A stretch of DNA of 64,000 bases from Desulfurobacteriaceae bacterium. GTDB lineage: Bacteria; Aquificota; Aquificia; Desulfurobacteriales; Desulfurobacteriaceae. The stretch is from positions 27,061-91,060 of the forward strand of contig JALSNF010000045.1 of the NCBI GenBank assembly GCA_026987115.1, read 5' to 3'. Below the pieces are notes generated by a model. The model worked only from the letters and a program-made list of their open reading frames with translations. It made no database searches and was not told the DNA's origin. Below, piece by piece: positions 1,847-5,861 of this stretch (position 1 is its first letter; every line of letters begins with the position of its first letter). The position numbers were made by a program, and so were the translations under genes.

Positions 1847-2083
1847 ATGAAAATACAGCAGATTTTAAAAGATACTCCTTACAAGTTAAAACTGTTTCCT
1901 GAAGAGATAATCAAAGAATTAGAGGAACGCACTTTTGAAAAAGAGACGAAAAAAGGAAAGAAATTCTATACAAAGTGCATAATAAGAGATAAAGACATAC
2001 AACTAAAACCAGAGGAAGTTATAAGGCAGCTATATTTAAAGTATCCAAAAAACAGAATAAAATTAACTCTAAAAGATAATTAG
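1847..2083 (+). pseudogene. N-terminal remnant of a type I restriction-modification R/M subunit (HSDR_N_2-like)
   Basis: The 78-residue frame resembles, by eye, the start of type I restriction or N-6 methylase subunits that carry an HSDR_N_2-like domain: YTKCIIRDKDIQLKPEEVIR followed by RQLYL. In intact relatives the text runs through several more residues before YPKNRI; here LYLK joins YPKNRI directly, suggesting an internal deletion, and the protein stops 15 residues later. The AT-rich AAA/ATA codon use differs from neighbouring genes. The next frame is the tail of a specificity subunit, so this is read as the left end of a collapsed hsd locus. It may still be translated, being three bases after the phosphoesterase stop. 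Confidence 0.6.
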
Positions 2084-2359
2084 CTTTTTTTAAACTCAAA
2101 GAAAGAAATAAAAGAATTAATGAAACAAAGATGTTCAGGAACTATTCTAACAGCCATCAATAAAGAGGATTTTATAACTATCCCTATTCCCAAAATCAAT
2201 CTCCAAACCCAACAAATCATAAAACAAAAAATCCAACAATCTTTTAAACTTAGAGAGCAGTCAAAACAGCTTTTAGAGACTGCCAAGAAGGCAGTGGAAA
2301 TTGCAATTGAAGAGGATGAAGGAAAGGCTATTAAGTTTATAGAGTGCCAGCTTACTTAA
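2084..2359 (+). pseudogene. C-terminal remnant of a type I restriction specificity subunit (HsdS)
   Basis: The frame opens at the codon after the 2081-2083 TAG and reads LFLNSKKEIKELMKQRCSGT then ILTAINKEDFITIPIPKI and a coiled segment ending AIEEDEGKAIKFIECQLT. The GTILTAI and IPIP text plus the following helix is typical of the end of an HsdS target-recognition domain and its conserved coiled-coil spacer. The ATG at 2120 chosen by the ORF track lies inside the conserved block, so it is not a true start. About 90 residues remain of a protein usually near 400. The TAA overlaps the end of the opposite-strand Omp85 gene. Confidence 0.72.
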
Positions 2360-4959
2360 AAGGGAAAGCCAAAGGAGATGTGAACTCTGCCTCTTCCTTG
2401 GCCGGGAACTTTCTTGAGTTTGTAGCCGTAATCAATCCTTAAAGGGCCTACGGGAGTTAGGTATCTTATGCCAAACCCTACAGAGGAATACCAGTTAGAG
2501 AGAGAAAAGTCTTTAAGAAAGGGAAAGACTTTACCGGAATCGTAAAAGAGAGCTCCCTCTAAGTTGCCCCAAAGGAGCCTTCGGAATTCTAAACTAAACA
2601 GACCGTAAGCTCTACCTCCAACAAAGTTTCCCTTTTTATCGGTGGGAGAGATTGTCCCATACTTATAGCCCCTTACGCTTTCAGCTCCTCCTAAAAAGAA
2701 CCTATCTTCAAGAGGAACTTTCTTATTCCTCAAAGACTCTATAAAGCCAAAGCCAAGCCTAAAAGAGAGAACGCTTTTCCCGTTTAAAGGAAAAAGGTAT
2801 TTAAACTTCGTATTTACAAGGTAATAGGAGGTATCTCCTCCAAAGAGGAAACCGGAAAGTGAGAAGGTATTCTTTAAAAGGTAGCCTTTGTGGGGATTTG
2901 AGATGCTGTCCCTCTTATCGTAAAGTTGAGTGTAAGAGAAAAGCCTTTCAAGGGTTCTCTTTACAGCGTTAATAGAGGTGTCGGTTAATTTTGACCTTAT
3001 AACTCTAAAAGAAAACCTCTGGGTAAGCTGTTTTGATGCTTTTCTATTTAAAGAGAAGTCGTAGTAAATCTTGTTTACTTTAAAGCTCTCAAATATCTGT
3101 TTCTTCTTAACTATTGAGTAAGTGCTGTTATACCTCCTAAAGGGAAACTGAGGCTTTAAAGCTTTAAAAACCATATCGTAGCCTTCTTTCTGTCTGTAGT
3201 TCCCAAAGACAAAATACTTAGTTCCAAGACCTAAAGGAGAGGTTGAAGAAGCAAAGGCGTTTACTACATAGCCTGAATCTGTTCCATAACCTAGAAAGCC
3301 TTTAAACCTTAAAAGAGCTCCTTCTTTAAGGGTTATTACTTCGTTAAAGCACTTCTTCCCTTTAAAACTTTTAAGGGAAATAGATGAAAAAAGCCTGCTT
3401 TCTAAAAGCAGGGAATACTGCTTAAAGAGCTCCTTATTTGAGAAGGTATCTCCAGGCTTAATAATTAGTAAATTCTTTATTGAAGGAAGTTTAGTTCTCT
3501 TAAGACCTTTAACTAGAACAAAGCAAAACCTGTAGGGCTTTCCGGGGTTTACTTTCACTTTTAAAGTAAAGTCTTTCTCTTTCTTGCTCTTTTTAAGGAG
3601 CTCCCTTTCCACCTTCACCACAACTTCAGGATATCCTCTATTTAGATAGCAGGAAGAGAGGGAGTCTGTAATCTGGGATACGAGGAAAGGCGTTAAGGGA
3701 AGAGGTGGCGTTGGCGGTTTAAAGCACCTAAGTTTGTCGCCGATTACCTTAAAAGACACTACTTTAAAAAGAGCTCCTTTATTTACCTTCAAAACCAGTT
3801 TCCCTTGGGGAAAAACTTCATAACTAACGCTCGCTTGCAGATAACCTTCCTTCTTTAAAGAGAGGAGGACTTTAGATTTAACCTCCTCTATCTTCTTATA
3901 GTTAAAGGGCTTACCTACTAAAACCTCTATCTCCTTACGAGGCAATCTATAACCTAAAGAAGAGACTTCCTTAACAACAACGTAGGGCCCCTCATCAATA
4001 AAGAAGATAACCTTAACTAGCTTTTCCCCCTCTTTAACTGAGACTTTAACCTTTACGAAAGGGAAACCTTTACTACGGTAAAAATTGACTATATTTTCTC
4101 TACTGTTTTCAATTTCAAATTGGTCAAAGGAGCGGGCACTCTTAAAGGTCGTAAGTTTTAAGAGCTCTTTTGAAGGAAAGTGTCTGTTCCCTTTGAAAAT
4201 CACCTCATATCTTTTCCCCGGTTTAACTTTAACAAACAGAGAAGCTTTTAAAAACTGGAGTAAACTTGGCCTTTTTTTGTTTTCCTGAGGAACTACCGAC
4301 AACTGTACGCTACAGTTGTAAAAACCTTTATCTATTAACAACTCCTCCAGTCTGTTTCTAACTTTTCCTAAAGTCTCGTAGTTAACCGTAGTGCCTTTTA
4401 AAGGAGAAAGGAGCCTTAAAAGTTTTCCTTTAAAAGAAGGAGGAGCCACTAGAACAATCCTGTTTATGTAAAGCCTATAACCCTTTTTTACGTTAACATA
4501 CAGAAGATAACCACACTTAAGTTTCCTAAATGAAAAGGAAATTTTAGGTTCAGGATATCCTAAAGCCTTAAGTTTAACCTCTAAAATCTGCTTTGTTCCG
4601 CTTAAATCTACCCTATCTACTCTCTTTCCCACTACAAGGAGTCTTATACTCTCTTTTAGACCCTCAAGCTCTTTAGGAAGCCCGCTAAAGAGGACCTTTT
4701 TAACCACCAAATAGTCGCTAATGTAGAGGACTCCCTCCTTCTCCTTAACTTCATAGCCCAGAGCTCTGAGAAAGTCAACGAGCTCTCCCTTACAGTTGCG
4801 GTTTAAAGCACACACTTTTGGGAGCTCCCCTTTAAGCTGTCTAAGGAGAAAAGAAGGGAAACACCCTTTTGAAACAAGTCTAACTCCTTGGCTGTAGGCA
4901 ACTCCCGTAAAGAAGAGAAAAAGAGAGAAAACGGCTAAGAAGGCACTCCCTTTACGTAT
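2356..4959 (-). CDS. Omp85/BamA-like outer-membrane assembly protein with multiple POTRA domains
   Basis: This is an outer-membrane beta-barrel assembly protein: several POTRA repeats (clear copies around YEVIFKGNRHFPSKELLKL and VVKEVSSLGYRLPRKEIEVL) followed by a C-terminal barrel with the Omp85 signature RFFLGGAESVRGYKYG and a terminal phenylalanine. The ORF track starts at GTG 4815, but the frame is open upstream to a TAA at 4984-4986 and encodes a good signal peptide, RKGSAFLAVFSLFLFF, ending near AYSQ. No ATG, GTG or TTG lies in that stretch; an ATA at 4957-4959 follows GGAGGGG at suitable spacing. With that start the protein is about 867 residues. It overlaps the end of the upstream radical SAM gene. 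BamA is likelier than TamA from size, but only by inference. Confidence 0.82.
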   Translation of the reverse strand: MRKGSAFLAVFSLFLFFTGVAYSQGVRLVSKGCFPSFLLRQLKGELPKVCALNRNCKGELVDFLRALGYEVKEKEGVLYISDYLVVKKVLFSGLPKELEGLKESIRLLVVGKRVDRVDLSGTKQILEVKLKALGYPEPKISFSFRKLKCGYLLYVNVKKGYRLYINRIVLVAPPSFKGKLLRLLSPLKGTTVNYETLGKVRNRLEELLIDKGFYNCSVQLSVVPQENKKRPSLLQFLKASLFVKVKPGKRYEVIFKGNRHFPSKELLKLTTFKSARSFDQFEIENSRENIVNFYRSKGFPFVKVKVSVKEGEKLVKVIFFIDEGPYVVVKEVSSLGYRLPRKEIEVLVGKPFNYKKIEEVKSKVLLSLKKEGYLQASVSYEVFPQGKLVLKVNKGALFKVVSFKVIGDKLRCFKPPTPPLPLTPFLVSQITDSLSSCYLNRGYPEVVVKVERELLKKSKKEKDFTLKVKVNPGKPYRFCFVLVKGLKRTKLPSIKNLLIIKPGDTFSNKELFKQYSLLLESRLFSSISLKSFKGKKCFNEVITLKEGALLRFKGFLGYGTDSGYVVNAFASSTSPLGLGTKYFVFGNYRQKEGYDMVFKALKPQFPFRRYNSTYSIVKKKQIFESFKVNKIYYDFSLNRKASKQLTQRFSFRVIRSKLTDTSINAVKRTLERLFSYTQLYDKRDSISNPHKGYLLKNTFSLSGFLFGGDTSYYLVNTKFKYLFPLNGKSVLSFRLGFGFIESLRNKKVPLEDRFFLGGAESVRGYKYGTISPTDKKGNFVGGRAYGLFSLEFRRLLWGNLEGALFYDSGKVFPFLKDFSLSNWYSSVGFGIRYLTPVGPLRIDYGYKLKKVPGQGRGRVHISFGFPF

Positions 4960-5861
4960 GGCTCCCCTCCAAAATAGAGCTCTTTAACCCTCCCCTCTTT
5001 TAAAAGCTCACTTACGGCAGATTCTACCTCTTCCTTTTCAACTCCTAAAGCTTCCGATATCTCGTCAACGGGGCACGGCCTCCTAAGGACCAAGTTGTAA
5101 ATCTCCTCTTTAAGCTCCTTAAAAGAGGATGCAGTCCTTGAGGAGCTCCCCTTAACGACAACTTCACTCTGGGGATAGTTAACTTTTTCAACTATCTTTA
5201 GGAGCTCTTCGTAGCTTAATCCCTTAACTGCGTAAGCAGGAGGCCTTGCAACCGTGTTAACCTGCCACTTGTGGGGCTTTAAAAAGTGAATTAACTCTCC
5301 TATCCTGTCAATCTCCTCCTCGGAATCGTTAATCCCCTTAACAAACAGGGTTTCAACCCAAACCTGACAAGAAGTCTCAGATGTGAGGCTTTTTATGCCC
5401 TCTACAACCTTAGACAAGGTAAGCCCTTCTACTGGCTTATTCAGCTTTTGGAAAACCTCCTCTGAGCCTGCGTCAAGGGAGGGAAGAACCACATCTATTC
5501 CCTCAACCTCCTTTAAAACCTCATCCCTGTAGAGCAAAGAGGCGTTAGTTAAAAGGGCAATTTTATAGGGGTAGTTTTCCTTTAAAAAGGAGACCAGCTC
5601 TCCCAAACGGGAAAAGAGGGTAGGCTCTCCGTAGCCTGAGAAAGTTATGTAGTCTAAGTCTGGTTTACTAGAAAGGTACTCTTTAAGCTCTTCAACAACT
5701 GCACAGTAAGGAACGTATTCAGCCCTTTTTAAGGTTTTTTCAGTAGTAGCTCCAACCTCACAGTAGAGACAGTCCATACTACAGACTTTAAAGGGAACTA
5801 AGTCAACCCCCAACGAAATGCCTAAACGCCTTGAAAAGACAGGACCAAAAATGTACTTCAT
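4935..5861 (-). CDS. Radical SAM protein of unknown specific function
   Basis: The 308-residue protein carries the radical SAM cluster motif CSMDCLYC near residue 28, followed by a TIM-barrel-like core (YITFSGYGEPTLF, LLTNASLL, VVLPSLDAG). A C-terminal part has a short helix-turn-helix-like segment, PCPVDEISEALGVEKEEVES. It resembles the small archaeal and bacterial group of uncharacterised SAM enzymes beginning YIFGPVFSRRLG. The track start is TTG 5873; the ATG at 5861 is preferred because GGAGAG sits six bases upstream of it. The gene ends inside the Omp85 signal-peptide region, so the two genes are probably co-transcribed. The substrate is unknown. Confidence 0.8.
   Translation of the reverse strand: MKYIFGPVFSRRLGISLGVDLVPFKVCSMDCLYCEVGATTEKTLKRAEYVPYCAVVEELKEYLSSKPDLDYITFSGYGEPTLFSRLGELVSFLKENYPYKIALLTNASLLYRDEVLKEVEGIDVVLPSLDAGSEEVFQKLNKPVEGLTLSKVVEGIKSLTSETSCQVWVETLFVKGINDSEEEIDRIGELIHFLKPHKWQVNTVARPPAYAVKGLSYEELLKIVEKVNYPQSEVVVKGSSSRTASSFKELKEEIYNLVLRRPCPVDEISEALGVEKEEVESAVSELLKEGRVKELYFGGEPYVKGVPS

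What the first reader, a model, noticed from the sequence alone, without database searches (positions are those of the whole stretch)
4816..4990. Omp85 gene with an in-frame signal peptide but no ATG/GTG/TTG start: possible ATA initiation
Seen: upstream of the track's GTG (4815) the frame stays open to a TAA at 4984-4986 and encodes a textbook signal peptide. The only sensible first codon is ATA at 4957-4959, with GGAGGGG four bases upstream. Starting at the GTG would leave an outer-membrane protein without an export signal. AUA/AUU starts are known but rare and usually regulatory. The site also lies inside the end of the radical SAM gene, so coupling may aid initiation.
Basis: partly seen in the sequence, partly recalled or inferred. 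Interest (0 to 1): 0.6.

Follow-up and report, generated by a model that had tools for sequence, protein, structure and literature searches.

The report
Conserved ATA start codon, outer-membrane gene
In a family of heat-loving vent bacteria, a gene for an outer-membrane assembly protein almost certainly begins at ATA instead of the usual ATG, and this weak start has been kept in 14 species of five genera, so it is a real, selected feature that standard gene annotation would miss.

Summary
The Omp85 frame (minus strand) is open from a TAA at 4986-4984, has no ATG/GTG/TTG before the GTG at 4815, and encodes a signal peptide. ATA (4959-4957) follows GGAGGGG at 4 bases. It is not a sequencing error: the same SD-ATA site starts the orthologue in 14 of 22 family genomes (five of seven genera). 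None of the 14 has a canonical codon upstream in the open frame; ten have none before codon 26. Sister genera that start at ATG have matching N-termini. The site lies in the end of an overlapping radical SAM gene, whose conserved Tyr codon alone forces NTA, but not the A. In that gene, of 62 conserved four-fold-degenerate columns only two never vary in the third base: CCA and GTA here, flanking an invariant TAC. These bases make ATA, Arg2 and Lys3 and avoid a stop. So ATA is selected as a start. Overlap plausibly traps it: ATG would cost the Tyr. A near relative has no UAU-anticodon tRNA, so the initiator must read AUA by mismatch. Low, IF3-sensitive, termination-coupled expression is inferred, not shown. 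AUA starts are known elsewhere (infC, ccpN): a new member of a known kind.

The parts
4957..4959 (-). ATA start codon of the Omp85 gene
   Evidence: Only one-mismatch codon after the SD between the in-frame stop and the signal-peptide core; ATA in 14 of 14 orthologues of five genera; its first base is the invariant wobble base of an overlapping Pro codon
4964..4970 (-). Shine-Dalgarno sequence GGAGGGG, four bases from ATA
   Evidence: GGAGG in 13 of 14 orthologues, GGGGG in one; predicted anti-SD pairing -9.4 to -10.6 kcal/mol
4951..4956 (-). Codons 2-3, CGT AAA (Arg-Lys, n-region of the signal peptide)
   Evidence: Overlapping TAC and GTA codons of the radical SAM gene never vary in the third base; GTT would give TAA here
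4888..4959 (-). Signal peptide MRKGSAFLAVFSLFLFFTGVAYSQ (cleavage site judged by eye, not predicted by a tool)
   Evidence: aligns with the ATG-initiated signal peptides of sister genera
2356..4959 (-). Full Omp85-family gene (867 codons plus stop), a second paralogue beside a separate BamA-like gene at G000:C28
   Evidence: Pfam Omp85 and POTRA; NCBIfam BamA and TamA models match below their cut-offs; paralogue
4813..4815 (-). GTG, first canonical codon in the frame; rejected as the start
   Evidence: Not conserved as a canonical codon in most relatives; conserved residues lie upstream of it
4935..5861 (-). Upstream radical SAM gene; its last 8 codons (stop included) overlap the start of the Omp85 gene
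   Evidence: Pfam Radical_SAM; Tyr of the GGEPYVKG tail kept in all 20 family members with this tail read, including the six without the ATA site
4984..4986 (-). In-frame TAA that bounds the possible start region

Best explanation
The gene is translated from the ATA codon at 4959-4957. The strong, close GGAGGGG places the 30S subunit, and initiator tRNA-fMet (CAU) pairs with AUA at two positions with a third-base mismatch, giving a protein that begins fMet-Arg-Lys and carries a Sec signal peptide. The ribosome that finishes the radical SAM gene about 20 nt downstream probably helps by termination-reinitiation. The start is weak and, like that of infC, should be restrained by IF3, which keeps this second Omp85 protein scarce. 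The codon is held by overlap: the radical SAM frame needs Pro-Tyr (CCN TAY), so the start must be NTA, and ATA is the only NTA codon that differs from AUG at a single base. Shown: conservation, selection on the bases, absence of a canonical start that gives the whole signal peptide, absence of a UAU-anticodon tRNA in a near relative. Inferred: initiation itself, coupling, IF3 sensitivity, low yield.
For: (1) Fourteen of 22 family genomes (five of seven genera) have the SD-ATA site at this locus; the radical SAM tree made without the overlap fits one old gain and a later loss in genus g3. (2) No ATG/GTG/TTG upstream in the open frame in any of the 14; in ten the first canonical codon is at codon 26 or later; in three (G001, G002, G006) a TTG lies inside the hydrophobic core at codons 11-12, and in G004 one lies at codon 6. 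(3) Every predicted product has a basic n-region and a hydrophobic core (best 10-residue mean Kyte-Doolittle 2.3-3.9) and aligns with ATG-initiated products of genera g3 and g7. (4) In the overlapping radical SAM gene only P301 (CCA 14/14; 13% of Pro codons) and V303 (GTA 13/13; 17% of Val codons) of 62 conserved four-fold columns show no third-base change; the mean is 4.6 changes. The TAC between them is also invariant, whereas TAT is used in all six family genomes read that lack the site. (5) infC in all 19 genomes with a hit starts at ATT, ATC or ATA after a strong SD, so the machinery accepts ATH starts. (6) All 44 tRNAs on the main contig of G003 were typed: three CAU, no UAU.
Against: No expression data, proteomics or ribosome profiling. 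The Tyr codon of the overlapping gene forces NTA whatever the start. Four of the 14 orthologues have a TTG between codons 6 and 12 that could in principle be used instead. The 14 genomes are related, so the count is not 14 independent events.
Confidence: 0.92

Rival explanations
1. Programmed -1 frameshifting in the overlap, stimulated by the internal SD, makes a radical SAM-Omp85 fusion whose internal signal sequence is later cleaved.
For: The Omp85 frame is the -1 frame of the radical SAM gene in the overlap, an SD-like element lies upstream, and GTA AAR contains an A-AAR motif.
Against: No X_XXY_YYZ heptamer: a tRNA on GTA cannot re-pair on CGT, and genome G006 has TTA instead. Frameshifting does not explain the invariant CCA and TAC. 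Sister genera make the two proteins separately, with ATG at or after the radical SAM stop.
Confidence: 0.03
2. The ATA is only a by-product of the overlapping Pro-Tyr codons, and translation starts at a downstream canonical codon (GTG 4815 in the window).
For: The Tyr codon forces NTA. A canonical codon exists somewhere downstream in every genome.
Against: The A of CCA, the C of TAC and the A of GTA are not forced, yet never vary. The downstream canonical codons are at different places in different genomes; in the window and most relatives they lie after the signal peptide, and in the window after conserved residues too.
Confidence: 0.03
3. Sequencing or assembly error in this contig (true ATG or a frameshift).
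For: The window lies in a fragmented assembly of 63 contigs, 91% complete.
Against: The same site is in 13 other genomes, including one in two contigs.
Confidence: 0.01

Closest known systems
infC (IF3) with AUU/AUC/AUA start, autoregulated by IF3
   Same: Conserved non-canonical ATH start with a strong SD; present in the same genomes, in genus g7 as ATA in a nearly identical context; S. aureus infC uses AUA (PMC13009471)
   Different: infC regulates itself; here the product is an outer-membrane protein with no known role in initiation, and the codon lies inside another gene
ccpN AUA start of Staphylococcus and Bacillus (PMC13009471)
   Same: AUA start and strong SD conserved between genera; reporters gave about 10-30% of the AUG level
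   Different: ccpN is a repressor gene in Firmicutes; overlap with another gene is not named as a constraint in the passages read
sigR GTC start in Streptomyces (PMC5472188)
   Same: Conserved non-canonical start with a strong RBS; IF3 limits expression
   Different: GTC codon in a sigma-factor gene; selection there is on the sigma to anti-sigma ratio
pcnB AUU start of E. coli (cited in PMC13009471)
   Same: Gene kept at a low level by an inefficient start
   Different: AUU codon, different gene and lineage

Membership tests
Genes with a conserved non-canonical (ATH) start codon | No canonical start codon that could give the full N-terminus | tested here: met
   none upstream in 14 of 14; in 10 of 14 none before codon 26
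Genes with a conserved non-canonical (ATH) start codon | The codon is kept in orthologues and selected beyond other constraints | tested here: met
Genes with a conserved non-canonical (ATH) start codon | Strong SD at proper spacing | tested here: met
Genes with a conserved non-canonical (ATH) start codon | Measured initiation at the codon and IF3 sensitivity | not testable with these tools
   Needs ribosome profiling, N-terminal proteomics or reporters
Omp85 superfamily | C-terminal Omp85 barrel domain and POTRA repeats | tested here: met
   Pfam PF01103 1.2e-42 and PF07244 3.7e-31, both above cut-off
BamA (TIGR03303) equivalog | Score above the curated cut-off of 297 bits | tested here: not met
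   221.6 bits; a separate BamA-like gene is in the same genome
TamA (NF047950) equivalog | Score above the curated cut-off of 625 bits | tested here: not met
   161 bits

The most novel reading that the evidence does not exclude
An AUA start in an outer-membrane biogenesis gene has been held since the ancestor of most of a bacterial family because the overlapping upstream gene forbids AUG (conserved Tyr codon) and permits only NTA; it serves as an IF3-dependent throttle that ties this outer-membrane protein to the IF3 level, in a lineage that also tolerates ATA elsewhere (murE in one species).
Probability: 0.35. Interest if true: 0.65.

Novelty: new member of a known kind. Interest (0 to 1): 0.52.

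Why it matters
Natural AUA starts with good evolutionary evidence are few, and gene finders that allow only ATG/GTG/TTG would truncate this protein and remove its export signal in most of these 14 genomes. The overlap gives a test that needs no experiment: third-base conservation in the upstream gene marks the true start. It is also a clean case of an inefficient start that may be trapped by an overlapping reading frame, with escape to ATG seen in one genus.

Tried and rejected
Error or frameshift in the assembly: rejected by 13 relatives. Start at GTG 4815: rejected by conservation upstream. Frameshift fusion: no slippery heptamer, and it does not explain CCA. Special initiator tRNA with a UAU anticodon: none among the 44 tRNAs of G003's main contig; anticodons were not read in the window's own genome. 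Conserved RNA structure at the start: single-sequence folds differ between relatives, no common structure evident. General use of ATA starts in the lineage: in about 864 kb (about half of G003's main contig, plus the window), 818 predicted genes gave only the Omp85 gene (in both genomes) and murE with ATA, and infC with ATC; the other flagged frames look like antisense frames, remnants or late starts, judged by eye. The motif is absent elsewhere in the window's genome at up to 2 mismatches. The E. coli paper on initiation from all 64 codons was not held.

Full report
Observation. On the minus strand the Omp85 frame opens after TAA 4986-4984 and reads AGA GCT CTA TTT TGG AGG GGA GCC ATA CGT AAA GGG AGT GCC TTC TTA GCC ... 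The first ATG/GTG/TTG is GTG 4815-4813. From the ATA the protein begins MRKGSAFLAVFSLFLFFTGVAYSQ. GGAGGGG ends four bases before the ATA. The radical SAM gene (5861-4935) has its stop 22 nt after the first base of the ATA. The protein is a true Omp85 family member and falls below the curated cut-offs for BamA and TamA. A separate BamA-like gene, with an ATG before its own signal peptide, is in the same genome.

Relatives. The window lies in a fragmented genome of 1.38 Mb. The nearest named records are Desulfurobacteriaceae. G003, of the same genus, has a main contig of 1,682,965 bases, which from memory is the chromosome of Thermovibrio ammonificans; G005 likewise looks like Desulfurobacterium thermolithotrophum. 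Both names are leads, not tests. Orthologues with a readable start region were found in 18 family genomes. Fourteen have the SD-ATA site, once per genome. None of the 14 has a canonical codon upstream in the open frame. Counting ATA as codon 1, the first canonical codon after it is at codon 49 in the window and at 6, 11, 12, 12, 26, 27, 27, 37, 48, 54, 65, 70 and 101 in the others. All 14 products have a basic n-region and a hydrophobic core. The other genera with a readable start, g3 and g7, have ATG at or after the radical SAM stop, and their products align with the ATA-initiated ones from the signal peptide on. Conserved residues between the signal peptide and codon 49 also argue against GTG 4815 as the start.

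Is it more than overlap constraint? The radical SAM frame reads GGA GGG GAG CCA TAC GTA AAG GG (Gly-Gly-Glu-Pro-Tyr-Val-Lys-Gly). Its Tyr is kept in all 20 family members read, so the Omp85 frame must have NTA at this place. The choice of A, however, is free in that gene. Of 62 conserved strictly four-fold-degenerate columns among the 14 genomes, only Pro301 (CCA 14/14) and Val303 (GTA 13/13) have no third-base change on the tree; the mean is 4.6. Both are minority codons (13% and 17%). The intervening TAC never varies, while TAT is used in all six family genomes read that lack the site. In the Omp85 frame these bases give ATA, Arg2 (instead of Cys) and Lys3; GTT, the commonest Val codon, would make a stop. 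If the two invariant four-fold columns lay anywhere by chance, the odds of this exact pair would be about 1 in 1,900 (62 choose 2), before counting TAC and the SD. The bases are therefore selected for a start at ATA followed by Arg-Lys.

History. A tree of the radical SAM protein made without the overlap places g7 outside and fits one gain of the ATA site in the ancestor of g1 to g6, then loss in g3. Some branches are weak, and more than one gain is not excluded.

Mechanism. There is no UAU-anticodon tRNA among the 44 tRNAs on the main contig of G003, so the normal initiator must read AUA with a third-base mismatch. infC in all 19 genomes with a hit starts at ATT, ATC or ATA after a strong SD, so the machinery accepts ATH and is probably IF3-autoregulated as in other bacteria (established knowledge; PMC5472188, PMC13009471). 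Published reporters of natural non-canonical starts with strong SDs, among them two AUA starts, gave about 10-30% of the AUG level (PMC13009471). I infer a weak, IF3-sensitive start helped by ribosomes that terminate 19-25 nt downstream. Why ATG is not used: ATG here would turn the conserved Tyr into Cys or Trp. Genus g3 shows another way out, an ATG at the radical SAM stop.

Wider use. In about 864 kb, with 818 predicted genes, only this gene and murE of G003 had ATA starts, and infC had ATC. murE of G003 reads AAGGAGGGCGAACA ATA AAA with no canonical codon until 164 codons later. Relatives with a readable murE start have TTG, ATG or GTG near there, so this is one species only and needs confirmation.

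Verdict. As a kind it is known: conserved non-canonical starts are described for infC, ccpN, sigR and pcnB. New here are the gene, the lineage and the constraint by overlap.

Noticed in passing
L109:11957-13411 (minus), G003:C2:811957-813411: murE of G003 has no ATG/GTG/TTG until 164 codons after an ATA with AAGGAGG upstream; the ATA overlaps the upstream stop as ATAA. Relatives use TTG, ATG or GTG.
   Followed up: partly
L080-L098: infC starts at ATT, ATC or ATA in all 19 family genomes with a hit; in genus g7 the context GGAGG(G/A)AG(C/T)CATAAGT closely resembles the Omp85 site.
   Followed up: partly
L153:4771-5166 (plus), G003: Ferredoxin-like frame interrupted by an in-frame TGA; Fer4 matches lie on both sides and the genome has a tRNA-Sec. 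Could be a selenoprotein, two genes or a broken gene.
   Followed up: no
window 1847-2359 (plus): Two small frames between the DHH-family gene and the Omp85 gene; the second looks by eye like the C-terminal end of a type I restriction specificity subunit, perhaps a remnant. Pfam gave no match above its cut-off.
   Followed up: partly
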